A stretch of DNA of 64,000 nucleotides from contig NZ_FRCW01000007.1 in NCBI RefSeq assembly GCF_900143055.1, positions 124,001 through 188,000 of the forward strand, in the 5' to 3' direction. The stretch comes from Fibrobacter sp. UWR3 (GTDB taxonomy: Bacteria > Fibrobacterota > Fibrobacteria > Fibrobacterales > Fibrobacteraceae). Shown piece after piece: positions 10,765-64,000 of the stretch (within the stretch, counting starts at the first letter, position 1; every line of letters starts with the position of its first letter). The position numbers were made by a program, and so were the translations under genes. Under the pieces are notes generated by a model that had not been told where the DNA came from, did not search any database, and was given only the letters and a program-made list of their open reading frames with translations.

Positions 10765-11718
10765 TTACTTGTAGCCAAGCAATTTCTTCTTGTGCTCAAT
10801 AAGTTTCGCCTGCTCCTTGATATGGACCAACGCCGGGATTGGACGCAAGGTAATCTTCAGTTCTTCCTTTTCCAGTTCTTCAATCTTGCCCGCATCCTTT
10901 GCCGCCATGCCTTTGATGATGTCGACGATGTCGTCAATTTGTTCAACACCGATGGCTATACCTCCCGTGACATTCGCAATCCAGGAGAAAAATTCGGGAT
11001 TGCCAAGTCGGGAGACACGACGACTGAAATTGCCGATTTCTACTTCGTAGAGCGTAGATTGGCGGCGGTAATCGCAGCCTGCCGAGCAGTATACTGTGTT
11101 TATGGTGACCTGCTTTTTGAAAAGCGACTCGGTGATTTTGAAATAGTCGTGCTGGTAAGGGCATTCGCTAACTTCGTGCGGCCGGGCATCGCCGAAAAGG
11201 ACAACGGAATGCGTGTTGATTTCACTCCAGTTCATTTCGAGTGCGTCGTGAAGTGCGTCTTCCACTGCTTCGTCTTCATCACCGCCGTATCCATCGGGCG
11301 TACCCAAGATAAACGACTGCAACTGCTCGACATTGACCGTTAACGGCTGGACTTTCGTGATGTAGGGGTCTCCGCTCCCGTGATCCAGGTAAAAGATGAT
11401 GCCTATGCGCAGGTTGGGGATGAGTTGGAAAAGCGTCGTGCATATTTCGGTAAACTTACGTTTCAATATTGCGTGGTAGGCGGACATAGATCCCGTTAAA
11501 TCGCCCATCAGCACCAGGTCGAGCCCCTTGTGCGCTTGCTGTTCCTTCTGCATTTTCTGCTTTATGGAGTCTCCCTTGAGGACGTTTCCCAAAGCCCCCT
11601 GCTTTTGCACGGAGGCAATGTTGAATGTCTTGATAGGCTTGTCGTCTTTCTTAACGACAAGGCTTCCGCTAGGCTTCTTGAGGGCCGGCAGGTGGAGTTT
11701 TGTTTCTACTTTTTCCAT
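10765..11718 (-). CDS. vWA-domain protein (TerY-like) of the J-domain arm
   Basis: This 317-residue protein consists of about 60 residues of lead-in followed by a von Willebrand A domain. The MIDAS motif is DLTGSM (residues about 72-77), with Thr in place of the usual first Ser; the later GGDEDEAVEDAL and LFGDARPH segments complete the metal site. The ATG at 11718 is chosen over a longer frame because it follows GGAGAAATAACC and sits 2 bases after the stop of the J-domain gene. vWA proteins of this kind work as metal-dependent scaffolds with AAA+ or kinase partners. In this locus a MoxR ATPase is encoded divergently. No signal peptide; cytosolic. Confidence 0.8.
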   Translation of the reverse strand: MEKVETKLHLPALKKPSGSLVVKKDDKPIKTFNIASVQKQGALGNVLKGDSIKQKMQKEQQAHKGLDLVLMGDLTGSMSAYHAILKRKFTEICTTLFQLIPNLRIGIIFYLDHGSGDPYITKVQPLTVNVEQLQSFILGTPDGYGGDEDEAVEDALHDALEMNWSEINTHSVVLFGDARPHEVSECPYQHDYFKITESLFKKQVTINTVYCSAGCDYRRQSTLYEVEIGNFSRRVSRLGNPEFFSWIANVTGGIAIGVEQIDDIVDIIKGMAAKDAGKIEELEKEELKITLRPIPALVHIKEQAKLIEHKKKLLGYK

Positions 11719-11720
11719 GG

Positions 11721-13247
11721 TTATTTCTCCCGTGTTTTGTGTGAATCTCTTGATGCGACGTAGGTACTGTCGTAAGTCGCTCTCTTTTCCGCGTTGGACA
11801 GTATATCCCACGCCTCGTTCAGTTGCTTGAACCGTTCGGTGTATTCCTCGCGATTATCTTCGGTCGCCTTGTCCGGATGGAACATCTTGGCCATCTTCCT
11901 GTACTGCCTCTTGAGTTGCTTGATGTCAAACTCCGTGTAGTCTGTGGCTTCATCATACTCGTCGTCGTAAAGGACCTTGTACAGGTCGATCCATCCGTCC
12001 GATGTATCCGAGGCTTCTTCACCTGGGGCTTCCGATGCGCTTGCGTAATTATTCAAGATGGTGATGATGTCTTCGTAACCCTTGCAATAACTCAAGCCTT
12101 CGACTATGTTCCTGTAGCTTTCCGCAAAAAAGAATGATTTCAGGTACTTGTCGGCTTCGAGAACGCAGTTCTCTATTTTCCCGAGCCACACGGAAAAATC
12201 GAGGCCTGAAGATTCGGCATGCTCCTTGATGGCGGCGTATTGGCTTTTGAGTTCTTCGTAGGCAAGATTGATTTCGTCAATAGGCACAGAGAACCCTTTG
12301 AATGTTCCGCTTGCATATTTCTCGTCAAGTTCTTTGAATTTCTGTATCGATTCCTCAAGAGCCTTGATGCTGACGCGGATGGTTTCCTTGACTACAATCT
12401 TCGCCTTTTTCCCATCTTCGCTGTCATCATACTTGATGTTGTCGAAGGTTTCGGATACGGCTTCCATATCGGCCAATTTTCGGTCGTATTCCTTGATTTT
12501 CTCGTTAAGGTTGTTCTCTATCTCGGAGCGGTCCTTTTCCCAGCGCTCCTTCTCGGCTTCGAACGCTTCTCGTTTTTCGCGTTCTCGAGATTCAAACGTT
12601 CTTTCCTTTTCCTCCACTTCGGCCAATCGCGACGCGATGGAAGATTCCCTTTCGGAACATTCCTTTTCGCGGGTTTCGAGATTCGCTATTTTAGCCTTGT
12701 ATTCATCTTTGAGCGCGTCGGCTGTTTTCTGCTTTTCTTCGTAGGTTTCCTTTTCCTGATTGCACTCCTTTTCTGCTTTCTCGGCCTTTGCGACCCTGTC
12801 CTTCATGGCGGAGCGCTCGTCTTTGATGTTTTGGCGCTCGGCGTCAAGGTCGGCATCCTTGATGGCAACGCGCTGTTCATCCTTGCGGACATTTTCGCTC
12901 CTGATGTGTATTGATATTTCTTCCTTGCGGATGGCCTCCTTGCGATCCTTCAGGTCATCTTCCCAATCTGCCAGGCGGTTCTGCTGCTGTTGCAGTTCCA
13001 CTTGCAGCGAGCGGTTTTCGTCAACGGTCTTTTGGAAGTCGGCGACCTGGTTGTTGAATACGTCAATGCCTTGCCTAATTCCGTTGCTATTGAGGATGGA
13101 TTGGTTCAGCACATCGATCGCCTGAGTGTTTATGGCCGCAGACTTGGTTAGGTTTCGCTCCGTGCGCTTAATCCGCTTGGCCTGCTCACGTTCCCGCAGG
13201 GCCTGCTCTTTTTTTCGCTTTCCGAAATTGAATATCGAAAACATCAT
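11721..13247 (-). CDS. Long coiled-coil protein with C-terminal J domain
   Basis: This 508-residue protein begins FSIFNFGKRKKEQ. Residues about 60-260 form a nearly continuous coiled coil (EKEC, EEKERTFESREREKREAF and similar). A helical middle section follows, and a J domain occupies roughly residues 425-500 with the diagnostic HPD in AKMFHPDKATEDN and the FKQLNEAWDILSN helix. J domains recruit and stimulate DnaK/Hsp70. Placing one at the C-terminus of a coiled coil is unusual and implies a targeted co-chaperone. The start has a good ribosome-binding site (AAAAGGAACACT). First gene of the minus arm, with vWA 2 bases downstream and a shared regulatory region with the MoxR operon. Confidence 0.85.
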   Translation of the reverse strand: MMFSIFNFGKRKKEQALREREQAKRIKRTERNLTKSAAINTQAIDVLNQSILNSNGIRQGIDVFNNQVADFQKTVDENRSLQVELQQQQNRLADWEDDLKDRKEAIRKEEISIHIRSENVRKDEQRVAIKDADLDAERQNIKDERSAMKDRVAKAEKAEKECNQEKETYEEKQKTADALKDEYKAKIANLETREKECSERESSIASRLAEVEEKERTFESREREKREAFEAEKERWEKDRSEIENNLNEKIKEYDRKLADMEAVSETFDNIKYDDSEDGKKAKIVVKETIRVSIKALEESIQKFKELDEKYASGTFKGFSVPIDEINLAYEELKSQYAAIKEHAESSGLDFSVWLGKIENCVLEADKYLKSFFFAESYRNIVEGLSYCKGYEDIITILNNYASASEAPGEEASDTSDGWIDLYKVLYDDEYDEATDYTEFDIKQLKRQYRKMAKMFHPDKATEDNREEYTERFKQLNEAWDILSNAEKRATYDSTYVASRDSHKTREK

Positions 13248-13308
13248 AGTGTTCCTTTTTGGTGGTAAAAGTGATGCTCATAATATACTCTTGATATGCG
13301 AATTCTTT

Positions 13309-13395
13309 GTTCGTACGAACTGTATGTTCGTAAAATGAAAATTCAATGAAAAAGTTGTTTCCTTCGTGAAAAATTTTGGTTATATTTAAAACCAA
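13309..13395. promoter_or_regulatory. Divergent promoter/operator region of the MoxR and J-domain arms
   Basis: The 165-base gap between divergent genes has a perfect palindrome GTTCGTACGAAC (13309-13320), an overlapping dyad CGAAC-N5-GTTCG (13316-13330), and a TTGGTT/AACCAA dyad (13376-13381 and 13390-13395) that encloses a TATATTT -10 box for the plus arm. The WYL regulator encoded in the plus arm is the natural candidate to bind here; this is inference. Confidence 0.55.
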
Positions 13396-13412
13396 GAAAA
13401 AAGGAATCTACT

Positions 13413-15779
13413 ATGACTGAAGCCGACATCTTACAAAAACTTGACGATGCTTTTAATGCTCTCTCCCAAGAGCGAAAGACCATCGTCGTACCACTTGTGG
13501 AGATGATAAAAAAAGCGGGGCTTGACAAAAAGCAAGCCTCAAATTATGAGCGGATTCTCAGTTCTTCCGGAAATTTTAAACTGGATCACAAGAAGGAAGG
13601 CGTTCTTGTGAATCATAAAAAATTTAAACCTATGGAGAAACCCATGACCACCTCCCAAGATACGGCAATTAATAATATGAACCTCCATGACAGAATCAAG
13701 GCGTTGCGAGATGCACTTTCTGAAGGTCTTTACGAAAAGGATGAAGCGGTTCGCCTTGCTTTACTTACTGCAATTTCTGGCGAAAGTATCTTTTTCTTAG
13801 GAAAACCCGGTTATGCAAAAAGTATGATTGCCTGCCGCATTAAGGAAGCATTCAAGGCTGATGATGGCAGCGATGCAAAATGGTTCGAATATCTGATGAA
13901 CCAGTTCTCAACACCGGAGGACATTTTTGGCCCTATTTCACTAAAAGCCCTAAATGCGGAAGGTGAAAGCGAAGAGGAAGAGTACAAGCGAATAACAAAA
14001 AATATGTTGCCTGAGGCAGACATCGCCTTTTTGGATGAGATTTGGAAAGCGAGTGCAGCGATTCAGAATACCTTGTTGAATATTATAAATGAACGTAAGT
14101 TTAGCAACGGCGGTGAAAGAAAAAAAGTTCCGCTTAAAGCGCTTTTCACAGCGTCAAACGAACTTCCCAAAAAGAATGAAGGCCACGAAGCATTATTTGA
14201 CCGCTTTATTTTACGCTTAATTGTTAATCCGATCCAAAACGAAGACAATTTTTTTGAAATGGTTGATGAGTCAACATCGCACGAATTTAAAATGCCTGAT
14301 GGTGTAAAACCTATTTCTGTCGGAGAATGGAATGCTTGGAAAGAAAAAATAGATGAAGTTTCGCTTTCTGATGCCGCAAAATCTGTTATTCGCGCGGTTC
14401 GAAACGAATTGGTTCTTCGTAATGAAGCAATGAGCGAAGATGAAAAGAAAAATGACGAGTTGTTTGAAGTAAGTGACCGTCGTTGGAAAAAGATTGTTCA
14501 TATTTTGAAGACGTCTGCGTTCCTTAATGATCGTACCGAAATTGACTTGATGGACTGTCAGCTTATTGAGTACTGTATTTGGAGTACTGAGAAACAACAG
14601 AAACTCGCTCGCGAAATTGTCGAAAAATGCATTCAGCAAAATGGCTTGGATTGTGATACCGCCATAGACGAAATTAAAGAGCAAATTGAAGAATTTGAAA
14701 AGAAGGTCAATGAGCAATGGTTTTATATGGAGGGTGATAAGCCGCTGACTTACAAAATGCGAGATGGGAAGCTAGCATATAAAATTACCCAGCCTAAAGA
14801 GATTAAGAGCTATGATAGCATTACCCCTGCGTATCTTTGTAAAGAATACGAGCATTCTTCTTATGATCGTCACGGAGCATATTATGATAAAAATGGTGAT
14901 TTTATGGGCGATTATGATTATTACTTCAAAGATAACAGCTTCGTATTATATGGTAAGCATGTGAATTGGATTGATGGATATACGGACATTAGTTATTCTA
15001 CAGAAATCGCCACAAAGACCGGTGGATTAATGAAAAAAAATTTTTCTGATATAGCCCACGAAACTCTTCAAGAAAGATTCACTAAAGCGGCTTACATGCC
15101 GATTGTATCACAGATAGAATCTGAAATAACAAAACTGAATGACCAAAAAAATAGCAGTGCTATTCCATTCAAATCAAATTTATTTGCCAATCAAGAGTAT
15201 AATACAATTATCACCACAAAAATAGACGATGCAATTCGTGAACTTCAAGATGCACAGATTTCTCTTGATAAGCAGCGTAATCGCTATTTAAATACAAAGC
15301 TCAGTAGTAAATTTACCGTGGGTGATGTAATCCTCAAAAATGGAGTCGTTTTCTCCGCTACAGAAGTTGCTGCATTAACAACGGAACAGAAGAAAGATGT
15401 AATTGCTGTTGTTTGCATTACAGGCGAAAAAACATACGCAATTGGAATTGATCAGTATATGGAGAGTTGGGAGGATATTCCAGAAATTGCATCTAACTAC
15501 GCAAGCAACAACGATCTTCCAAATGAATATTCTTCTAATTGGATAGTCCCAAATAAAGATTTGCTACATATGATTTGGCAAAATAGGGAAACGATTAACA
15601 AGTCTTTGGAACAACTTGAGTCTGCATGCACATTAGACGAAGAAGAATATTGGTCTTCAAGCACAAATGGTAATTCTGCGGCATTTTATCAAATGTTTGA
15701 CGAAGATGGGCAAATAGACCATACTACAAAAGACCATGAATACTCTGTTTGCGTAATTCGCGAATGGGAAAAAGAATAA
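13413..15779 (+). CDS. RavA-like MoxR-family AAA+ ATPase
   Basis: This 788-residue protein has a helical N-terminal extension of about 90 residues, then an AAA+ MoxR module. Walker A is GKPGYAKS (about residue 130; compare GPPG.AKS in RavA) and Walker B is IAFLDEIW followed by KASAAIQNTLLNIINERKF (about 204-230). Sensor 1 (LFTASNELPK) and the arginine-finger region (ALFDRFILRL) are present. The second half is alpha-helical with a Tyr-rich insertion (about 470-540), which is larger than RavA (about 500 residues). MoxR ATPases work with vWA partners such as ViaA; that partner is the third gene of this operon. Good ribosome-binding site AAAAGGAATCT. AT-rich codon use compared with flanking host genes suggests horizontal acquisition. 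Confidence 0.88.
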   Translation: MTEADILQKLDDAFNALSQERKTIVVPLVEMIKKAGLDKKQASNYERILSSSGNFKLDHKKEGVLVNHKKFKPMEKPMTTSQDTAINNMNLHDRIKALRDALSEGLYEKDEAVRLALLTAISGESIFFLGKPGYAKSMIACRIKEAFKADDGSDAKWFEYLMNQFSTPEDIFGPISLKALNAEGESEEEEYKRITKNMLPEADIAFLDEIWKASAAIQNTLLNIINERKFSNGGERKKVPLKALFTASNELPKKNEGHEALFDRFILRLIVNPIQNEDNFFEMVDESTSHEFKMPDGVKPISVGEWNAWKEKIDEVSLSDAAKSVIRAVRNELVLRNEAMSEDEKKNDELFEVSDRRWKKIVHILKTSAFLNDRTEIDLMDCQLIEYCIWSTEKQQKLAREIVEKCIQQNGLDCDTAIDEIKEQIEEFEKKVNEQWFYMEGDKPLTYKMRDGKLAYKITQPKEIKSYDSITPAYLCKEYEHSSYDRHGAYYDKNGDFMGDYDYYFKDNSFVLYGKHVNWIDGYTDISYSTEIATKTGGLMKKNFSDIAHETLQERFTKAAYMPIVSQIESEITKLNDQKNSSAIPFKSNLFANQEYNTIITTKIDDAIRELQDAQISLDKQRNRYLNTKLSSKFTVGDVILKNGVVFSATEVAALTTEQKKDVIAVVCITGEKTYAIGIDQYMESWEDIPEIASNYASNNDLPNEYSSNWIVPNKDLLHMIWQNRETINKSLEQLESACTLDEEEYWSSSTNGNSAAFYQMFDEDGQIDHTTKDHEYSVCVIREWEKE

Positions 15780-15788
15780 GTACAAACT

Positions 15789-16070
15789 ATGACCTTGCTT
15801 GATAACGAAATAGAAATCCTTCGCCAGAAATTTCCTGACGGCACGCCGAATGTTCATTCTCTTTCGGATGAACAAAAGGCGTGGCTGCATATGAAGATAC
15901 AGTCTATTGCAGAAGGAATTGTTCCCTCTCCAGTGATAAGTCAACTTGAAAAAATCGGAAATCGTCTAACGCATGCAACGGAAGATATTCCTGATGATGA
16001 AATGCAGAAAATTGTGTCGTTTATTTTTGCAAATATGAATGAGATTGAGAACATACCGAAAAGAGGATGA
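15789..16070 (+). CDS. Small helical protein, paralogue of the vWA protein's N-terminus
   Basis: This 93-residue soluble protein has LRQKFPDGTPNVHSLSDEQ and a C-terminal helix ending FIFANMNEIENI. These align by eye with IRKKFPLGISDVSEISDES and TLFQNIQKISDDL in the first 120 residues of the next gene. It starts 9 bases after MoxR, and its stop overlaps the vWA start (ATGA). It is probably a dedicated adaptor that mimics or competes with the vWA N-terminal domain; that role is inferred. Confidence 0.7.
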   Translation: MTLLDNEIEILRQKFPDGTPNVHSLSDEQKAWLHMKIQSIAEGIVPSPVISQLEKIGNRLTHATEDIPDDEMQKIVSFIFANMNEIENIPKRG

Positions 16071-18139
16071 AAATGACAAAAAAGGATTTTCGTTCTAATT
16101 GTCGTAAGGCTCTTAATGTACTTGAAACTATACGAAAAAAATTCCCGTTAGGAATTTCGGATGTCTCAGAAATTTCAGATGAATCACGAGCCTTGATACA
16201 GGTTAAAATTCAACAATTCCGTGAATGCGTAAAAGGAGAAGGGCGACTCTTGTCCAAATATTCTTGGTGGAATCCGATGAGACTATCAAGAAATAAAACA
16301 GCCCACACAAAAAAAGACCTTTCTGATAAAGAATTCTCAGGATTATGCGACACCCTTTTTCAAAATATTCAAAAGATATCAGATGATTTATGTAAAATCA
16401 TAGGTATTCATCGTCATCATTCTAAGAAAAAACGCAAATTCGAAAACTTTGCTCCAAGTAGCGCTTTTGGTACAGAAGCGGATAGAAAACAGCTTATTGA
16501 CGCAATGGAGGATTTGGCATCACCTGTTGAGCCCACCGATATTAAGATTGAATTTCCCCAGAATGATTATGCAAAGCTTGCTGAAAAGACATTCTCAGAT
16601 ATTCTTGACCATGATGACATAAAGGATTACATCCAATCTCATGAAGGGGTCTCTGAAAATATCCAGACCGATATTCTTGAATGGCTGCAGCTAACAAAGG
16701 AAACACTTGACAAGGAAGACCCCTTCCTAGATGAATCTATTTTTATCGAACAACACAAGAAATGGTCTGCTATAGATGTAGCTACAGATTTAACGAATGA
16801 GAATTCAAAAATTCAATACCACTATAGACGATTGCCTTCTGTAAGCGAATCGAAACGGGGGGCAATCGCCCCAAGCAATCTTAATTTCAATTTCTATAAG
16901 AACCAATTTGCAGAACAGAAAAAAGAGCCAAAAAAGGATGACAAAGATAAAGCACCTATCCAATGGAAATCTTTGGAGCAACTGGAAGTTCTTCGCAGAA
17001 ATTTCATCGGCGACATGGAAGAATGCTTTATTGACCGCAAAAATAAATGGGAACAAGAACGTATTGATGAAATGCGAAAGACGTTCCTAGAAGAGCTGTA
17101 TAAAAAAATACAGAATTTCAAGCGTCTTGAAAAACTCCTTTCCCCATTCATCAAGAATTTTGGGCGGCTTTGGGATTTGTCCGAAGGATTTTTTGAAACT
17201 AGTGGCTTTGAAATTCTGGAACAATTCGCAAAACTCCTTGAACAAGATCAATCGTTGCAAGAACTTGCAGAAATCTTGGGTAAGCAGAATCGCGCACAAT
17301 CCATTTTTGAAAAGGAACTTCGCGATAAAGTTGTCATAAAGACAGAATGGCATCCCCAAAATGCCTATCGTGGAGAGATTAAAGGCATTTGTTTTTCGAA
17401 CGATATATCATCGATCTTGCCAAGTGAATTGGCATTAATGAAAAATCCGGCAACAAAGAAACTCTTCCAGCTGCGATTCGCCCAAAAGCAGCTGTTGTCT
17501 TTCGAATACCAAAGAAATGTCGAAAGGACAAGAAAAGAATCTACACAGGAAGAGGTTTCCATTGAAAAGAAGGAACCCAAAGGTCCTATTATTATCTGTG
17601 TAGACACAAGTGGTTCTATGCATGGAACACCGGAAAACATTGCAAAAACCGTGACATTCGCCTTATCCAAAATCGCACTCGAAGAAGAACGAAAATGCTA
17701 CCTGATTTCATTCTCTACAGGAATAGAAACTCTAGATATGAGAGATTTCAAAAAAGGCGATAGTTTGCAGAAACTCGTTCGTTTTCTACAGATGTCTTTT
17801 AATGGCGGCACAGATGCGAGCCCGGCATTGCAGCATGCAATAAAAATGCTTCAATCCAACGATTATAAGAATGCAGATGTCCTTATGATATCGGATTTTG
17901 TAATGGCAAATCTTCCGCGCAATTTAATTGATGCTATAGAAGTAGAAAAAGAAAAGAATACCGATTTTTACAGCCTTGTAATTGGGACAAGCGGCAATCA
18001 AGGCACAATAGATTGTTTCAATCACAACTGGTCGTATAATACAAACGATATCCATGCATCACGACATTTAGTTGAACAGTTGCATTCCATAAAAATGCGT
18101 CCCACAAGTCAAGGATTATCCGACAATGCCGACAAATAA
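16067..18139 (+). CDS. ViaA/CoxE-like vWA-domain partner of MoxR ATPase
   Basis: This 690-residue protein has an N-terminal domain (about 1-125) shared with the 93-residue upstream protein, a long helical middle, and a C-terminal vWA domain (about 500-660). The MIDAS is intact: IICVDTSGSMHG, then FNGGTDASPAL, then MISDFVM. This is the arrangement of ViaA (about 480 residues) and CoxE proteins, enlarged at the N-terminus. Known pairs such as RavA-ViaA act as ATP-driven remodelling machines. Overlaps both neighbours (4 and 14 bases), so the stoichiometry is probably controlled by coupling. Cytosolic; no signal peptide. Confidence 0.87.
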   Translation: MKMTKKDFRSNCRKALNVLETIRKKFPLGISDVSEISDESRALIQVKIQQFRECVKGEGRLLSKYSWWNPMRLSRNKTAHTKKDLSDKEFSGLCDTLFQNIQKISDDLCKIIGIHRHHSKKKRKFENFAPSSAFGTEADRKQLIDAMEDLASPVEPTDIKIEFPQNDYAKLAEKTFSDILDHDDIKDYIQSHEGVSENIQTDILEWLQLTKETLDKEDPFLDESIFIEQHKKWSAIDVATDLTNENSKIQYHYRRLPSVSESKRGAIAPSNLNFNFYKNQFAEQKKEPKKDDKDKAPIQWKSLEQLEVLRRNFIGDMEECFIDRKNKWEQERIDEMRKTFLEELYKKIQNFKRLEKLLSPFIKNFGRLWDLSEGFFETSGFEILEQFAKLLEQDQSLQELAEILGKQNRAQSIFEKELRDKVVIKTEWHPQNAYRGEIKGICFSNDISSILPSELALMKNPATKKLFQLRFAQKQLLSFEYQRNVERTRKESTQEEVSIEKKEPKGPIIICVDTSGSMHGTPENIAKTVTFALSKIALEEERKCYLISFSTGIETLDMRDFKKGDSLQKLVRFLQMSFNGGTDASPALQHAIKMLQSNDYKNADVLMISDFVMANLPRNLIDAIEVEKEKNTDFYSLVIGTSGNQGTIDCFNHNWSYNTNDIHASRHLVEQLHSIKMRPTSQGLSDNADK

Positions 18140-19169
18140 AAACGCATTCTTACGAATAAAGATTCTCGATGGACTACTTTCAGAGAGCGTAGTTCGCCGT
18201 TACACAATGAACGATTTGACAAGATTGTGCAATGAACAGCTTGAGATATCTGGCGAACGCCAAGTAGGACGTCGCTGTCTCGAAAAAGATATAGAATTTA
18301 TACAACAACAGTTTGGATTAATAGAAAGAGAACGTTCTGGTAAAAGCACAATCTTACGATATACTAATCAAACTGATAGTATCTTTAACCAAAGTATTTC
18401 TACATCGGAAAGAAAACTTCTTCAAGCAGTTTCTCAAACTTTCGGAAAAATGGATGGTGTAGAAGACTTTGAAGTATTAAATCAGTTAAAAAGCTCTGCA
18501 AACGACCAGGAACAGCCAATCATTATTTTTGAAAAAAATGAAGATTTGAACGGTCGCGACTTATTGCCAAAGCTTTTTAGACTGATTGAACGCAAAACCA
18601 CCATAGAATTGAAATATCATCGCATCAAAGACACTCAAAAACGGAACAAAAAACAAATATTCCCTCACGTTCTAAAGCAATGTAAAGGCAGATGGTTTCT
18701 GTTTGGTACTACTATTGATACAAAAGAGGTCATGTGCTATTCTATGGACCAAATAGAGGATATAAAGCCTTTACCAATAAAATACAAACCATATGATGGA
18801 AGATGGGATGAATATTTTGAAAGTGTAATTGGTGTTACAAAAAAAGCTGATGATACTCCACAGGATATTGTTTTCTGGGCCTCGCAGGATGAGTGTGCCT
18901 ATTTGGCCGGTAAACCGGTCCATTCATCCATGACACCCCTAAAAAAGAACGATGCAGAACTTCGGAGAAGATATCGTCTTCCCGATGATGGAAAACTATT
19001 CCGCATTAATTGCATCGTCAATTTTGAGTTGAAAAGAGAAATGGCTTCAAAATTTGGGGAGAGAATTGTTCTTGAACCACCTTCTCTGCGAAAAGAAATA
19101 ATTAATGATGTCAAGACAATGCTGAATCGATACAGAATGATTACTTCAAAGAGATCTAAGTTTGTTTAA
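18126..19169 (+). CDS. WYL-domain transcriptional regulator (HTH + WYL)
   Basis: This 347-residue protein has an N-terminal winged helix (about 1-80, with the RCLEKDIEFIQQQFG recognition segment), a WYL domain (about 165-240: TIELKYHRI, GRWFLFGTTIDTKEVMCYSMDQIEDI) and a C-terminal WCX-like extension (about 260-345). WYL proteins sense ligands, often nucleic acids or nucleotides, and commonly repress defence operons. It overlaps the vWA gene by 14 bases. The dyads at 13309-13395 are its likely operators. Confidence 0.85.
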   Translation: MPTNKNAFLRIKILDGLLSESVVRRYTMNDLTRLCNEQLEISGERQVGRRCLEKDIEFIQQQFGLIERERSGKSTILRYTNQTDSIFNQSISTSERKLLQAVSQTFGKMDGVEDFEVLNQLKSSANDQEQPIIIFEKNEDLNGRDLLPKLFRLIERKTTIELKYHRIKDTQKRNKKQIFPHVLKQCKGRWFLFGTTIDTKEVMCYSMDQIEDIKPLPIKYKPYDGRWDEYFESVIGVTKKADDTPQDIVFWASQDECAYLAGKPVHSSMTPLKKNDAELRRRYRLPDDGKLFRINCIVNFELKREMASKFGERIVLEPPSLRKEIINDVKTMLNRYRMITSKRSKFV

Positions 19170-19207
19170 ATGGATCTATTCGTCACCAAATTATAAGGAG
19201 TTTTTCA

Positions 19208-21904
19208 ATGAGTACAAGCTTACCGAAATTGCAAATCCTGCTAAATGATATGCTCGTTAATGCAAGAGCAAAAAGGACCCAACAGAATCTAAATATGTCT
19301 TTTGGCGAGAAAGATTACATAACGCTTTTAGATGTAAAAGCGCGTTTTTCAGAAATATGGAATGATCGCAATTTGTTCATGACTATTGATGAACTTAATA
19401 AGGAAAATGTGGGCGATTTCCTCATGAAAAACGCAATATTCTACTTCTTTATGCGAACAATACAGATTAAAGATTCTGAGTTCTTTAAATTGGAATCAAA
19501 CCAGCTGAAAGAGTTGATATTTAAAACTATTGTATATATACATTCCAACGCACTAATGGATGAAAGCCTTAAACGAGAGCGCGAGTATTTTGATAACGAA
19601 ATAAGCGAAGGAAATAAGCCCGAAATTGAAGCTTTTTATCAACTACTAGAAGCAAAAATGCCAAAAGAAGAATATTATGATTATGCACTAGGTTTTTATG
19701 TTGCTTCCGCTTCAAAATACATGGAAAAAAAGAACCCGTATTGGTATTTAAACTTCAAATCAATAATTGACTATGTAGGCAACGCACGAAATCCTGAGAA
19801 ATTCTCTGGATTAGTCAACGAAATCATTGTCAAGTACTTTTATATATTTTGCGACTTGCAAACTATTGACAAAAAGTTCATGCATACAGAACTAAACTTA
19901 ATCGAAAGAAGAATTTCTAATCAAGACTATACGCATAAAGTTTTGCTTGCTTGGAACATACAAGATATATACAATATGGTTTGCATTGATTGTCTTGTTC
20001 GTGATGACGTTAAGCAGAATATTTTTGAAGAGTTAATGGCCAAGGTGTTTTACAACGAATATTCCATCTCCTACTCCTTGCAGAGTAATAGAACTGCAGT
20101 TAAAGAAGCAAATGAATTTTGGAAAAGTAACTTGTTCAAAGACAAAATATTAAAAAATGACATTATCGGTTTCAGCAGAGACGATTACTATACTACTCCC
20201 TATCAGCTATTTAATGCAGTTTTTTATGTATTCAAAGAGGATTTCAATCAGAATCCTGGAATTATCGCATGTCTTTACTTGTTATCAACAGAAATGGATG
20301 CCGACTCATTCTTTAGTTTCTTTTCATTAGAAAAGGAAGATGAAAAAGATGGTAAACTGACTAATCATTATCTAAGGAAGATTGATGATACCCTTAAACA
20401 GGAAAGTATAATTAATCATAATTTAGAAATTAGGGGAGAACGAGGAAAAAATTATCGAAGATATCATGATATTTTCTCTGGTTACAAAGATGCAATAAAG
20501 AAGGGAAAAACGGAAGAATGCTTAAAATTGCAACAAGAAAAACAGGATTTAGAATTAGGCGTTAATCGGAACTTTGATTTAAAAAGAGATTTGCTACAAC
20601 GCTTCCTTTGGTTTACCATAGTTTTCAAATGCGGTCTCTTTTATGATAACGACGAAGATGTTTATAAAATAAATTCTGATCGCGATAAAATGCTTATTCC
20701 TTTTTGCAATGGAATGATAGGTAATGAATACGCGAACATTAAGTATGTAAATGTGAATTTTAACTCTATTTTGAAAAAGATTGGTGTGGAAAATGAAATA
20801 GATTTGTTTATAGATAAAGTAAAAGATTATAGGAGCATTGTACTTTTAGTATACAATCTTTCCCGCGCCGAATTTAATAGTAGGGAATTTCTTATCAATG
20901 AGATTAACTCAATCAGGGAAATACAAAAAGAAAAACTACATGTTGACTTAAAAGATGTTCCTAGGGGAGAAAAATTTCAAGCCAAGGCCGAGGAGATAAA
21001 AGAATATAACAAGGTTTCAAAAAGAAATCTTGAGAAACTAAAAAAGATTGACTGTGGATTTAAGTTGAATTCCTTCTCGCAAAGCTTTTATCCTTTTTCT
21101 GCAAGTTCTTTCCATTCAAAAGAAATTTGGTTAAAAGGTAATAAGCAAGGTCTGTTTTCATTTGGTTTTGAACATCGTGTTGACTGTAAATTGATTTGGG
21201 AAACAGATAATGAGTATTCCGATGGTGAATTGAATTGGCGTGTTATTAATGAAAGAGGGTTGACAACTAGATACTTATATCGAGATAGAAATTCCTATAC
21301 GCATCATTCAGAGCATTCAAGTGTAAACGCTCTTATGGAGCCCAAAAACTGGGCGAACTTGTTAAGGGCTTTATCTTATTATTATCTGTTGTTAAGATGT
21401 CGTTTCTGGAGTGAGAGAATCTGTCTTCGCGAAGGTTATAATATCCAAGAAGATGATACTTTTTTCCAAAACCTGTTCCTTCAATCAGAGGTTGAGGATA
21501 TTTATAATATTCTCGTTTCATTGGTGCAAGAATGTGCGGGCGTTATTATATCAAAACCACCGGTTATATTTGACGCTGAGAAATATAATAAGACTCAAGG
21601 TAAAGACGCCTCAACAGTTGACGACTTGTTATCCTACATACAAGAACACGGCTCGAAGAAAAGTGAGATTTCTTATTCTGAAATTCCAGAAAGGCTTGAC
21701 CCAAACTATGAATTATTTGAAATGCGTCTTGAGCGATTACTGAAAATTATGTTCATGGTAAATGATTTTGATCCTGTTGATCAGAAGCACTCTGTCAAGT
21801 TTATGGATTTTTATAGCCAATACAATACGGAAATATCCATCTATCTCATTTATATGGCGTTTGCTATGAATTACTGTGACGATGTGAAGGCTGACTCACT
21901 TTAA
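19208..21904 (+). CDS. Large orphan protein closing the MoxR operon
   Basis: This 898-residue soluble, mostly helical protein has no family I can recognise. It has a Lys/Glu-rich segment (about 425-455), a Tyr/Phe-rich composition, and a late stretch with WLKGNKQGLFSFGFEHRVD and RYLYRDRNSYTHHSEHSS. No Walker, HNH, PD-(D/E)XK or TIR motif is evident, though weak nuclease motifs cannot be excluded by eye. It starts 38 bases after the WYL gene behind AAGGAG, so it is part of the same operon. In MoxR/vWA conflict loci the large variable protein is often the substrate-recognition or effector component; that is the working guess. Confidence 0.75.
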   Translation: MSTSLPKLQILLNDMLVNARAKRTQQNLNMSFGEKDYITLLDVKARFSEIWNDRNLFMTIDELNKENVGDFLMKNAIFYFFMRTIQIKDSEFFKLESNQLKELIFKTIVYIHSNALMDESLKREREYFDNEISEGNKPEIEAFYQLLEAKMPKEEYYDYALGFYVASASKYMEKKNPYWYLNFKSIIDYVGNARNPEKFSGLVNEIIVKYFYIFCDLQTIDKKFMHTELNLIERRISNQDYTHKVLLAWNIQDIYNMVCIDCLVRDDVKQNIFEELMAKVFYNEYSISYSLQSNRTAVKEANEFWKSNLFKDKILKNDIIGFSRDDYYTTPYQLFNAVFYVFKEDFNQNPGIIACLYLLSTEMDADSFFSFFSLEKEDEKDGKLTNHYLRKIDDTLKQESIINHNLEIRGERGKNYRRYHDIFSGYKDAIKKGKTEECLKLQQEKQDLELGVNRNFDLKRDLLQRFLWFTIVFKCGLFYDNDEDVYKINSDRDKMLIPFCNGMIGNEYANIKYVNVNFNSILKKIGVENEIDLFIDKVKDYRSIVLLVYNLSRAEFNSREFLINEINSIREIQKEKLHVDLKDVPRGEKFQAKAEEIKEYNKVSKRNLEKLKKIDCGFKLNSFSQSFYPFSASSFHSKEIWLKGNKQGLFSFGFEHRVDCKLIWETDNEYSDGELNWRVINERGLTTRYLYRDRNSYTHHSEHSSVNALMEPKNWANLLRALSYYYLLLRCRFWSERICLREGYNIQEDDTFFQNLFLQSEVEDIYNILVSLVQECAGVIISKPPVIFDAEKYNKTQGKDASTVDDLLSYIQEHGSKKSEISYSEIPERLDPNYELFEMRLERLLKIMFMVNDFDPVDQKHSVKFMDFYSQYNTEISIYLIYMAFAMNYCDDVKADSL

Positions 21905-60052: not shown

Positions 60053-62098
60053 ATGATAACGAGTTATAAAAAAGCAAAAGATGATGTCTTGACCTGCTAT
60101 AATGAATTTCTTCAGGTCGCAAATCAAGTCAATGGAATAAAAGATGATCGTTCCTTACAAATTCTTGCAGAACAAGCAAAAAAAATAAAAGAAGACAAAT
60201 TTTGCTTAATGATTGCAGGTGAAGCGAAGAGCGGAAAGTCAACTTTTATAAATGCATATCTTGGTGTTGAAATTCTACCAATGGATGTTAGACAATGCAC
60301 AAGTTCAGTTGTAGAGATTCGTTATGGTGAAGAATTTGTCTTGTATGCTAAATTTGCGGATGGACGAGAGCGGGAATATCGTGGAGAAGATACCATAAAA
60401 GATTTTCTCGTTGCAAATGCTGCTTTAGATGATGAATATAGGGATATTCCTGTAACAACGATTAATAATGAAATTATTGTTAAGTATAAGGACAAAAGAA
60501 TTCCTGAAGAAATTATAAGAGATCTTTTAAAGGGTGTGGAACGAGAAAATATTCATAGATTGCCCCGAGATGAATATGAAAAGAGGATAAGAACGTACAT
60601 CAAAAAGAAACAGCCTGATTGGAAGAATGTGGTTGAAAAGATTGAAATTCAATACCCCTTTGAAGATAAAAGTATGAGGGGCGTTAGAATCATTGATTCT
60701 CCGGGTGTAAATGCTGCAGGACGAGTTGGAAATGTTACGGCGGCATATATTGAGTCTGCTGATGCAATCATGTTTTTGCGACCTATTACTGGAGTTGCTA
60801 TTGAAGCTGAGAGTTTTAAAGAATTTTTAGAGTCTAAAAGTGTTGACCGAAATAAAAATGCAATGTTTTTAATTTTGACGCGCGCTGCTGCGGAGTCTAA
60901 TGAGACCATTGAAAGGGCTCGTGATGAATTTGTTAATATGTTTGGAGTTCAGAAGGCTGAAACTCGCCGTGGAATAGTGAATGAACAGATTATTTCTGTA
61001 GATAGTAAAGCCGAATTATACCATAACTCTTTTCAAAATTTATCTACAGAAGAAATTAAAGCTCAGATGAAAAATCTGACGGCAGAAAAAAGAATAGAGC
61101 CTTTTTTGACAGCGGCATGGTTTAATGCGGAAGGAGAGAAAGAAGCGTTTCTTCGTGAGCTAAAAAAATATTCCAATTTTGATAAAATTGATCAGTCTTT
61201 AAATCGTTTTGGACGAAAGGCTCAGTTTCTTGCTTTAAGTGAATTTCTGGGAAGAATTTTGAAAATGTACGCGAAGATTGCGGCGAATCTAAGAGAAGAA
61301 ATTGAAAACTATAAATTGAAGGCTAAAAATCCTGCGAAATTAGCGGTTAAAGTCGAGGAAACAAAAGCGGCTCTTACTGATATAGAAAATAAAATGAACG
61401 AGACTGTAGATAATATTGCTGCAAAATATGCTGGGTCTAAAACTAATGGGATTATCGCAAAGACTGCAGAAAAAGTGATGAATGCTTATCTTGAAGAAAT
61501 TGAATGCATTGAAGGTGAGGGTGACTCCAGCTTGGACAAATTGGAAAAAATTTCGTATTGTCAGGTTGACAAGTTTGTTGAATTTGAAGATGATTTGCAA
61601 AAAAAAGTCGTTGCTGAGTGTAATGAGGCTCTAGTTGCGCTCAGTGATAAAAATTCTATAGAGTTTGTAACATTGGAGCCTGATTTTTCGAAAGAAGTTG
61701 TTGATGAAATTAAAACTTCTATGCGTGATGAAGCTAAAGAGACTGAAAGCTATACAGAAGGGGTTACGTTTAAAAAAACTCGTTATAGATCAGTTTTTTC
61801 GCAGCATAAGTTTTATCATCTTGTGAAGAATAGTATTCTCGAAAGAATGGATGGTATAAAACAACAGGCGGTAAAAGATCTTCGTTCTTTTGTTCGACAT
61901 ACTGTTATTGCGTATACCAAAGAACTTGCAAGGAATGCTGATGCTAAGAGGGATGAATTGACAAGGATAAAAAAAGAAAAGAAAACTGCTGATGAAATAG
62001 CAATTATTCTAAATGAACTGAACGGACTCCTTGGGGTAATAAATCCGAATGAGAACCTTGTTAAAGAACTAAAAGGAGGAATTGATGGAAATGTGTAA
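60053..62098 (+). CDS. Dynamin-like GTPase
   Basis: This 681-residue protein has a G domain with P-loop GEAKSGKSTF (about residue 57), switch Thr in the CTSSVVEI segment, G3 DSPGVNAAG (about 215), and a G4-like LILTRAA. Around it are coiled-coil helices (about 400-470 and 560-680) of the bundle-signalling-element/stalk type. Bacterial dynamin-like proteins of this size act in membrane protection and anti-phage responses. The next gene overlaps by 14 bases and encodes a membrane protein. AT-rich, codon use unlike the host neighbours, which points to acquisition. Confidence 0.85.
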   Translation: MITSYKKAKDDVLTCYNEFLQVANQVNGIKDDRSLQILAEQAKKIKEDKFCLMIAGEAKSGKSTFINAYLGVEILPMDVRQCTSSVVEIRYGEEFVLYAKFADGREREYRGEDTIKDFLVANAALDDEYRDIPVTTINNEIIVKYKDKRIPEEIIRDLLKGVERENIHRLPRDEYEKRIRTYIKKKQPDWKNVVEKIEIQYPFEDKSMRGVRIIDSPGVNAAGRVGNVTAAYIESADAIMFLRPITGVAIEAESFKEFLESKSVDRNKNAMFLILTRAAAESNETIERARDEFVNMFGVQKAETRRGIVNEQIISVDSKAELYHNSFQNLSTEEIKAQMKNLTAEKRIEPFLTAAWFNAEGEKEAFLRELKKYSNFDKIDQSLNRFGRKAQFLALSEFLGRILKMYAKIAANLREEIENYKLKAKNPAKLAVKVEETKAALTDIENKMNETVDNIAAKYAGSKTNGIIAKTAEKVMNAYLEEIECIEGEGDSSLDKLEKISYCQVDKFVEFEDDLQKKVVAECNEALVALSDKNSIEFVTLEPDFSKEVVDEIKTSMRDEAKETESYTEGVTFKKTRYRSVFSQHKFYHLVKNSILERMDGIKQQAVKDLRSFVRHTVIAYTKELARNADAKRDELTRIKKEKKTADEIAIILNELNGLLGVINPNENLVKELKGGIDGNV

Positions 62099-62717
62099 CG
62101 CAGAAATAAAAAAACAAGTAGAGAAGATGTTTTGTGACCTGCATTCTAAATCAGACGATATCGTGGCGATGTCTTCTGTATATAAGAGTGCGTTGGATAG
62201 AATAATGAAACTAGTTTCTTCACGGATAGCTGCAGAAAGTGAAGGGTATATTGTTGATATGTACACCGCCTTGGTCGAACAGATTAAACAGGAATCTTTT
62301 TTTCAAGATCCGAATCATTTGAATGCTTTCTATAGGTTGAATTTAAGGGAAAAACTAAATGACAAATATCATTTTGAAATTGATTCCTTGGATGCATTTC
62401 AGAAGGGCATTGATTATAAAGAAATTAATCAGTTGTACGTCTCGCTGGGAACTGCTGCGGGAACACTTGCCGTGGGTGGAATTCTTAAATTTGCGATATC
62501 AGGTGTTGTAAATATTCCGTTTGCTGTGATTGTTGCTGGTGCGGCAACTGTTGCTTGTTCGTCATATTTCAAAATAGTTCCTTCTCGAAATAAAGCAGCC
62601 TTTAAAAAGGCTGTGGATAATTTTTTATTAGATATGGAAAGTGATATATTGAATTGGCTCGCTGATGTTGAAAACTTCTTTGAAAGTCAAGTCAAAACAT
62701 TGTATTCGCAAGACTAA
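62085..62717 (+). CDS. Membrane partner of dynamin-like GTPase
   Basis: This 210-residue protein has helical N- and C-terminal parts flanking a Gly/Ala-rich membrane hairpin (about 125-165: AAGTLAVGGILKFAISGVVN, IPFAVIVAGAATVACSSYF). Start at ATG 62085 with AGGAGG 8 nt upstream. Overlap with the GTPase gene suggests one complex. Paired dynamin-like and hairpin membrane proteins are common in bacteria. Family not named. Confidence 0.75.
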   Translation: MEMCNAEIKKQVEKMFCDLHSKSDDIVAMSSVYKSALDRIMKLVSSRIAAESEGYIVDMYTALVEQIKQESFFQDPNHLNAFYRLNLREKLNDKYHFEIDSLDAFQKGIDYKEINQLYVSLGTAAGTLAVGGILKFAISGVVNIPFAVIVAGAATVACSSYFKIVPSRNKAAFKKAVDNFLLDMESDILNWLADVENFFESQVKTLYSQD

Positions 62718-62737
62718 TTTATGCAGAGTGATTAAAA

Positions 62738-64000
62738 ATGTTGAGAAAAGGTTCATCAGAAGATATGGCAAATCCAGAGAATTTGAAAAGACAATTTGAA
62801 GAAGATACGGCTAATGTTGCTGAACAGACTGTGTTGTTTTTGCAAACAATGCATCCCGCTTATATGGTGTCATCGTCTAAGGATGAACTGAAAAGAATAT
62901 CGTATTCGGATTCAAATGTTATCTTAGATGCTTTTACTTATTACAGAATTGCAAGTTGTTCTGTTGAGAATATTGATGATTTATATTTGTATCTAAATGA
63001 AAAAATGGTCAATGTTTTTACAGCTTTATATTCTTTTGAGAAGCCTGTTCTTTATGGAATAATTTCATATGAAGGTCAGGCTAATCTTGTTATTGGTATT
63101 TATGACGATGCTGATGAAGATTACAAAATAAGAAACATTGTAGAAGGGCTTCTTAATGGCATAGAATTGAATCCGTATGTGCCATCTTTCTCAAAACGAA
63201 AGGAATGCGAAAAAAATGTTGGTTTTATTTCTGCAATTCCTTCTGTAAAAATTGGCGAGGAAAAGCCGAAATTTAGCATATCTGCATTGATGAAAAGCCT
63301 TAATGGTCAGAATTATACAATGTTGTTTGTTGCTAGACCCATTTTACAAGATACTATTTCTCATAAATATGGTGAAATTATCAATATCAGAGATGCTTGC
63401 TTTGCCGTCAGCAAAAGGAATGTTTCTCGTCAACGCGGTTTTACGCGTACGGAAGGTGAAACTAATGGAAAAACGATTACCGATTCGCATACTGTTGGAA
63501 AATCGAGTTCTACAAGCAGAAATGTGGGGCTGAGTTTTGTTCTGTCTGCTGGTAAATCGTGGAGTAGCTCACAAAGTTCATCCGATAGTCATTCTGTCTC
63601 GCAAACCTATAGTAAGTCAATTTCTGAGGCTGTTAATCGAACTGAGGGGATTTCCTCAGAGGTGCAAAATGGATTTGCTTTGGAAATGATGGAATATGCG
63701 AATAAAGCGATAGAACGGTTGAAGCAAGGTAGATCAAACGGAATGTGGGAAACCGTAATTTCTTATTCCGCGGAATCACCTTTTGTTGCTGGGGTCATTA
63801 AAGCCTGTATTTCAGGAGAAATTGCTAAACCGAATCCGGACATATTACCTTTAGTTTCACGAGAATATCTTCTATCAAAAGAAGAAGCGCGGAAGAATTC
63901 TTTAATTCTTCCTAAAATAATCAAGGGCGAAAAAGAATGCTCTTCTTTATGTACTGCGTTGACATCTGAAGAATTGGGTATGATTTGCTCAATACCAACA
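62738..64000 (+). CDS. HerA/VirB4-like ATPase, N-terminal part (gene runs off window)
   Basis: The frame is open from ATG 62738 to the window end, giving 421 residues. It has an N-terminal domain of about 170 residues, then a VARPI segment, a Ser/Thr-rich stretch (SSQSSSDSHSVSQTYSKSIS) and LTSEELGMICSIPT at the edge. This sequence order precedes the Walker A of HerA/FtsK-like, VirB4-type ATPases in conflict systems. The ATPase core itself lies outside the window, so the call is by analogy only. Same operon as the GTPase (20-base gap). Confidence 0.55.
   Translation, partial: MLRKGSSEDMANPENLKRQFEEDTANVAEQTVLFLQTMHPAYMVSSSKDELKRISYSDSNVILDAFTYYRIASCSVENIDDLYLYLNEKMVNVFTALYSFEKPVLYGIISYEGQANLVIGIYDDADEDYKIRNIVEGLLNGIELNPYVPSFSKRKECEKNVGFISAIPSVKIGEEKPKFSISALMKSLNGQNYTMLFVARPILQDTISHKYGEIINIRDACFAVSKRNVSRQRGFTRTEGETNGKTITDSHTVGKSSSTSRNVGLSFVLSAGKSWSSSQSSSDSHSVSQTYSKSISEAVNRTEGISSEVQNGFALEMMEYANKAIERLKQGRSNGMWETVISYSAESPFVAGVIKACISGEIAKPNPDILPLVSREYLLSKEEARKNSLILPKIIKGEKECSSLCTALTSEELGMICSIPT

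What the first reader, a model, noticed from the sequence alone, without database searches (positions are those of the whole stretch)
60053..64000. Dynamin-like GTPase, membrane partner and HerA-like ATPase in one AT-rich operon
Seen: intact GTPase motifs, a hairpin membrane protein overlapping it, and a third gene whose N-terminal part and edge motif TSEELG resemble HerA/VirB4-type conflict ATPases. Established: bacterial dynamins can protect against phage. Inference: coupling a membrane-remodelling GTPase to a DNA-pumping ATPase would be a novel combination.
Basis: partly seen in the sequence, partly recalled or inferred. Interest (0 to 1): 0.85.

Follow-up and report, generated by a model that had tools for sequence, protein, structure and literature searches.

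The report
Dynamin–HerA operon carrying swappable nuclease toxins
A mobile gene cluster, found in unrelated bacteria, ties a membrane-remodelling dynamin and a secretion-type motor to an interchangeable DNA-cutting toxin and its antidote, which suggests an undescribed way for bacteria to deploy toxins.

Summary
Beyond the window edge the third gene is a complete 1,048-aa HerA/VirB4-type ATPase with intact Walker A and B. It overlaps a WHH/colicin-type nuclease gene, which is followed by a SUKH immunity gene. The order dynamin – membrane protein – HerA ATPase – toxin – immunity (often led by a WYL regulator) recurs in Fibrobacter, Clostridia, Negativicutes, Bacilli, Halomonas and Bacteroidales. 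A version with two dynamins sits on Treponema, Lactococcus and E. coli plasmids. In the close clade the dynamin is present in 24/24 loci with enough flank, and a toxin gene follows the motor in 26/26. The toxin is polymorphic: WHH, LHH, NucA-like, PoNe and others, each with its own immunity family. Near-identical operons differ only in the C-terminal toxin domain plus immunity gene, while the toxin N-terminus is kept. This is the signature of a polymorphic toxin system whose carrier machinery (dynamin + membrane anchor + VirB4/HerA-like motor) matches no trafficking mode I found described. Most likely the motor and dynamin export or deliver the toxin to competitors (about 0.55). Intracellular defence with a leashed nuclease is the main rival. 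No experiment exists, and the delivery step is inferred.

The parts
60053..62098 (+). Dynamin-like GTPase, 681 aa
   Evidence: Pfam Dynamin_N 4.4e-17; nearest solved structure BDLP1 2J68, 3.4e-14; G1/G3 residues conserved at 95% or more in 26 homologues
62085..62717 (+). Membrane-anchor protein, 210 aa, helical with one hydrophobic hairpin region; overlaps the dynamin gene by 14 bp
   Evidence: AGGAGG before the ATG; TM segment at 133-151; conserved in 20 of 24 close-clade loci; AlphaFold model is helical, pLDDT 72.7, hairpin poorly modelled
62738..64000 (+). N-terminal part of the HerA/VirB4-type motor ATPase; the gene continues beyond the window to the equivalent of 65884 (1,048 aa). Followed by WHH/colicin-type nuclease toxin (equivalent of 65875-66627, 250 aa) and SUKH-1 immunity protein (equivalent of 66629-67033, 134 aa)
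   Evidence: structure of the 82%-identical orthologue, pLDDT 83.5, motor core like VirB4/DndH/HerA

Best explanation
The operon is a polymorphic toxin-immunity system with its own deployment machinery. Shown by sequence: a dynamin-like GTPase, a small membrane-anchored protein and a HerA/VirB4-family hexamer-type motor are encoded as a fixed unit, and behind them sits an exchangeable cassette of a toxin C-terminal domain plus a matching immunity gene. The toxin N-terminus stays with the machine while its toxic domain is swapped. Inferred: the short toxin N-terminus is the tag that loads the toxin onto the motor. The motor sits at the membrane through the anchor protein and pulls or pushes the toxin out of the cytoplasm. 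The dynamin reshapes the membrane (vesicle, tubule or fusion) so that the toxin leaves the cell or enters a neighbour, where the WHH nuclease cuts nucleic acid. The SUKH protein neutralises the nuclease in the producer and its kin.
For: Conserved order WYL-Dyn-Mem-HerA-toxin-immunity: dynamin in 24/24 and an effector gene in 26/26 close-clade loci with enough flank. In an independent set of 299 genomes of one family, the motor and the dynamin occur in the same 2 genomes, adjacent, with toxin and immunity. Six of seven genomes tested hold exactly one dynamin of this family, and the seventh (a two-dynamin locus) none. Effectors come from the repertoire of delivered polymorphic toxins: of 77, WHH 29, LHH 24, NucA-like 7; immunities SUKH about 38, DUF6985 10, YezG 7, PoNi 1. 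Toxin class and immunity family match almost one to one. Cassette swaps: L067/L077 share 95-97% DNA through the motor and the toxin's first ~47 aa, then an unrelated toxin domain and immunity, then homologous flank again. Between two Fibrobacter strains the machinery is 82-86% identical (dynamin/motor third positions 66-69%), but toxin and immunity are 97%/95% (third positions 94%/91%). Shared N-terminal tags on toxins with unrelated C-termini: 'YKNIxPENG', including two successive effectors in one locus, and 'MIE' in 12/77 effectors, against 13 of 1,127 ORFs of these loci, most of which are the effectors themselves. [quoted passage not shown] Dynamins LeoABC of ETEC promote vesicle-associated toxin release (PMC4159319).
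Against: No secretion or killing data exist. No outer-membrane or channel component is visible, although the operon occurs in Gram-negatives. WYL regulators and HerA ATPases are frequent in anti-phage systems. No orphan immunity gene was found in 78 other Fibrobacter genomes. The N-terminal tags are short and differ between subclades. The membrane protein has no significant structural match.
Confidence: 0.55

Rival explanations
1. Intracellular defence: motor, dynamin and anchor sense an invader (phage or plasmid DNA entry, membrane damage) and free the nuclease from its immunity protein, so the infected cell or the invading DNA is destroyed.
For: HerA-nuclease and HerA-SIR2 complexes are anti-phage systems and match the motor. 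A WYL regulator often precedes the operon and matches CRISPR/defence-associated WYL models. The two-dynamin variant weakly resembles Eleos LeoA/LeoBC. Some flanking genes are defence candidates. DndH-C matches the motor as well as VirB4 does.
Against: The listed HerA defence systems carry no immunity gene of this type (own knowledge). Toxin domain and immunity are swapped together while the toxin N-terminus is kept, as in toxins aimed at competitors. Flanking genes were mostly ordinary or mobile-element genes, though no control set was run.
Confidence: 0.3
2. Plasmid or mobile-element maintenance or transfer module: the toxin-immunity pair is an addiction unit, and the motor and dynamin help DNA transfer or partition.
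For: Found on Treponema, Lactococcus, E. coli and Exiguobacterium plasmids and near integrases, resolvases and DUF932 genes; AT-rich, and present in only 2 of 80 Fibrobacter genomes.
Against: Many copies are chromosomal; addiction needs neither a conserved toxin tag nor a three-protein machine; toxins are swapped while the machine is kept.
Confidence: 0.08
3. Chance neighbours in a defence or mobile island with no joint function.
For: All components occur separately elsewhere.
Against: Overlapping genes and fixed order across distant phyla; strict co-occurrence.
Confidence: 0.01

Closest known systems
Polymorphic toxin systems (T5SS/CDI, T6SS, T7SSb effectors; Zhang et al. 2012, PMC3482391)
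   Same: Swappable C-terminal WHH/LHH/NucA toxin domains, each with a cognate SUKH/YezG/PoNi immunity gene, and a conserved N-terminus
   Different: No known carrier (no CdiB, VgrG/PAAR, WXG/LXG or EssC seen in the operons read); instead a dynamin, a membrane anchor and a HerA/VirB4-type motor
Eleos / LeoABC dynamins
   Same: Bacterial dynamins encoded in operons, often in pairs; LeoABC is linked to vesicle-borne toxin release
   Different: Eleos has no HerA motor or toxin-immunity cassette (own knowledge); the window dynamin has no LeoA/LeoBC match, and plasmid relatives match only weakly
HerA-SIR2 / HerA-DUF4297 (Nezha) anti-phage complexes
   Same: HerA-family ATPase working beside a toxic enzyme
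   Different: Here the motor has long extra N- and C-terminal regions, dynamin and membrane partners, and the nuclease carries its own immunity gene
VirB4 / TrwK of type IV secretion
   Same: Best structural match of the motor core (Z 31.2, 347 residues)
   Different: No relaxase, pilin or channel genes in the operon
NCBIfam NF033849 'serine-rich protein' of anaerobes
   Same: The family to which the motor gives its best NCBIfam match (8e-39), spanning the ATPase region
   Different: Well below that model's cut-off; the model carries no function

Membership tests
Polymorphic toxin system | Variable C-terminal toxin domain behind a conserved N-terminal region | tested here: met
   L067/L077 and L086/L096 swaps and shared tags
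Polymorphic toxin system | Cognate immunity gene directly downstream, of matching family | tested here: met
   LHH with one SUKH group 22/22, WHH with another 16/16, WHE with DUF6985 10/11
Polymorphic toxin system | Trafficking domain of a known secretion pathway | tested here: not met
   The Pfam scan of 77 effectors listed no trafficking domain, LXG/WXG included
Polymorphic toxin system | Toxin is delivered to other cells | not testable with these tools
   Needs competition and secretion assays
Eleos (LeoA/LeoBC) | Match to the PADLOC LeoA and LeoBC models | tested here: not met
   Window dynamin has no such match; plasmid DynA/DynB reach only 3e-14 or weaker over part of the models
HerA-FtsK superfamily ATPase | DUF87/HerA core with Walker A and B | tested here: met
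   DUF87 above cut-off; Walker residues invariant in alignments; Z 27-31 to HerA/VirB4
HerA anti-phage systems (PADLOC/NCBIfam) | Passes a HerA_antiphage model cut-off and has a SIR2/DUF4297/nuclease partner without immunity gene | tested here: not met
   38 bits against a cut-off of 800; the partner is a WHH nuclease with an immunity gene
Type IV secretion | Other T4SS genes beside VirB4 | tested here: not met
   None among the operon genes or immediate neighbours read
Bacterial dynamin-like proteins | Dynamin_N domain with G1-G3 motifs and stalk | tested here: met
   stalk inferred from length only

The most novel reading that the evidence does not exclude
A new type of protein secretion or toxin delivery system in which a dynamin-like GTPase and a VirB4/HerA-like motor, tethered by a small membrane protein, deliver polymorphic nuclease toxins to neighbouring bacteria, working in both Gram-positive and Gram-negative hosts.
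Probability: 0.45. Interest if true: 0.95.

Novelty: new variant of a known kind. Interest (0 to 1): 0.87.

Why it matters
Bacterial dynamins have few known jobs, and no polymorphic toxin carrier I found uses one. The toxin-immunity swaps give a ready readout (killing of siblings that lack the immunity gene), so the function of a bacterial dynamin and of an orphan HerA/VirB4-like motor becomes directly testable. The system occurs in gut, rumen and dairy bacteria and on plasmids, so it may shape competition there. If it is a defence system instead, it would be an unusual one that keeps its nuclease leashed by a dedicated immunity protein.

Tried and rejected
Chance ORFs or chance neighbours: rejected. 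Eleos membership: rejected for the window dynamin. T7SS effectors: no WXG/LXG. Conjugation cluster: no T4SS genes seen nearby. Orphan immunity genes in sister genomes, as a sign of competition: none in 78 other Fibrobacter genomes. Viral contigs: only distant relatives. Structure of the membrane protein: no significant fold match, so no function claimed. Defence-island test with PADLOC on 122 flanking genes: a minority of strong hits, no control, not decisive. Blast clustering of immunities merged SUKH and YezG by a spurious link; Pfam was used to separate them. Literature: eight searches of the open-access library found no paper with this combination; subscription papers and most preprints are not covered.

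Full report
WHAT IS THERE. The window is bases 124001-188000 of contig C7 of a 3.5 Mb Fibrobacter-type genome (the nearest locus outside is a Fibrobacter succinogenes MAG). Reading past the edge gives a five-gene operon on the + strand: dynamin-like GTPase (681 aa), membrane protein (210 aa), HerA/VirB4-type ATPase (1,048 aa), WHH/colicin-type nuclease (250 aa) and SUKH-1 immunity protein (134 aa). The genes overlap or abut (14 bp overlap, 20 bp gap, 10 bp overlap, 1 bp gap). Pfam: Dynamin_N 4e-17, DUF87 1.4e-6, Colicin-DNase 1e-23, WHH 2e-17, SMI1_KNR4 3e-13. The operon is 35.4% GC in a ~51% GC window.

IT IS A CONSERVED, MOBILE UNIT. In Fibrobacterota 6 of 168 genomes have a motor relative; one same-genus genome (G122) carries the whole operon, and the window's toxin and immunity genes occur in only 2 of 80 genomes of the genus. 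Plasmid copies with the same plan occur in Treponema, Lactococcus and E. coli (two dynamins) and Exiguobacterium (a dynamin relative that gives no recognisable GTPase motif); the E. coli copy is in 1 of 5,426 complete genomes. A scan of 84,980 species genomes confirmed 522 relatives and returned the best 80 loci. In the 28 close-clade loci, dynamin is present in all 24 with enough upstream sequence, the membrane protein in 20 of these 24, and an effector gene directly behind the motor in all 26 with enough downstream sequence (23 WHH or LHH nucleases). Many distant-clade loci show WYL-DynA-DynB-Mem-HerA-toxin-immunity, but others lack dynamin, so the motor family is broader than this system. 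In an independent sample of 299 genomes of one family, motor and dynamin each hit the same two genomes, next to each other, and the new one also has an LHH toxin and immunity gene.

THE EFFECTOR IS A POLYMORPHIC TOXIN. Of 77 effector genes 29 match WHH/Colicin-DNase, 24 LHH, 7 NucA-like endonuclease, and single ones a papain-fold toxin, a peptidase and an ADP-ribosyl cyclase. The 66 immunity genes are SUKH (~38), DUF6985 (10), YezG (7) and PoNi (1). Class and immunity family go together. On the motor tree the toxin type changes at least 28 times (FastTree, six coarse classes, so a rough figure). Two near-identical operons (L067, L077) share 95-97% DNA through dynamin and motor into the toxin's first ~47 codons, then have unrelated toxin domains (WHE with DUF6985 against NucA with YezG), and are homologous again just behind the immunity gene. 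Between the window and G122 the machinery is 82-86% identical but toxin and immunity are 97% and 95%, with dynamin/motor third positions at 66-69% against 91-94%, which indicates recent exchange of the cassette. Effectors with unrelated C-termini share N-terminal tags: YKNIxPENG (twice in successive genes of L086 and L096), MIE (12 of 77) and FDPDKR (8 proteins against 0.3 expected).

THE MACHINE. AlphaFold of the 82%-identical motor (pLDDT 83.5) gives a core nearest VirB4 of T4SS (Z 31.2, rmsd 3.0, 347 residues) and DndH (31.0), then HerA (27.1). Foldseek also aligns TrwK/VirB4 over most of the protein, though with poor rmsd. The N-terminal half carries a serine-rich loop (model residues ~229-300, disordered). 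The membrane protein has one hydrophobic hairpin region here, but a single C-terminal (tail) anchor in the Treponema and E. coli versions. The dynamin is nearest BDLP1 among solved structures.

MECHANISM. Shown: the fixed machine, the exchangeable cassette, the conserved tags and the intact catalytic motifs. Inferred: the tag loads the toxin, the motor moves it, the dynamin reshapes membrane, and immunity protects kin. Dynamins that promote vesicle-borne toxin release are known (LeoABC, PMC4159319). WHH and LHH domains are described as largely confined to polymorphic toxins (PMC3482391), and the carrier modes listed in the passages I read from that review include no dynamin. The rival, a nuclease leashed by its immunity protein and released on infection, is kept alive by WYL regulators, HerA defence systems and DndH similarity.

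VERDICT. The system is real, conserved and unreported as far as the open-access library shows. The cassette is a known kind (polymorphic toxin-immunity) on an apparatus I could not match to any known carrier. I file it as a new variant of a known kind, with a sizeable chance that it is a new secretion type.

Noticed in passing
window 10765-21904: A second AT-rich island (35-38% GC): VWA protein, DnaJ-like protein, MoxR-type AAA ATPase, second VWA protein, WYL regulator and an 898-aa protein; looks like another conflict-type cluster.
   Followed up: no
L013:4314-11044 and L014:5421-14242: Other motor relatives in Fibrobacterota sit beside a ZorA/ZorB-like pair or an Hsp70-like protein, and are followed by proteins with Gly/Ala/Ser-rich hydrophobic N-termini; similar proteins follow the motor in Acinetobacter (L017) and Photobacterium (L024).
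   Followed up: partly
L086:12418-14084, L096:12358-14441, L085:12364-14272: Loci with two successive effector-immunity pairs; in L086 and L096 the two effectors share an N-terminal tag.
   Followed up: partly
L016:5827-7803, L023:5397-7028: The Exiguobacterium and Ruminococcus albus plasmid copies carry a DynB-like protein without recognisable GTPase motifs in place of the dynamin.
   Followed up: no
L002:11535-12497: A 320-aa protein with WYL-like C-terminal wording but no Pfam match lies near the operon in G000 and G122 and near the different HerA cluster of G117, suggesting a shared accessory-gene neighbourhood.
   Followed up: no
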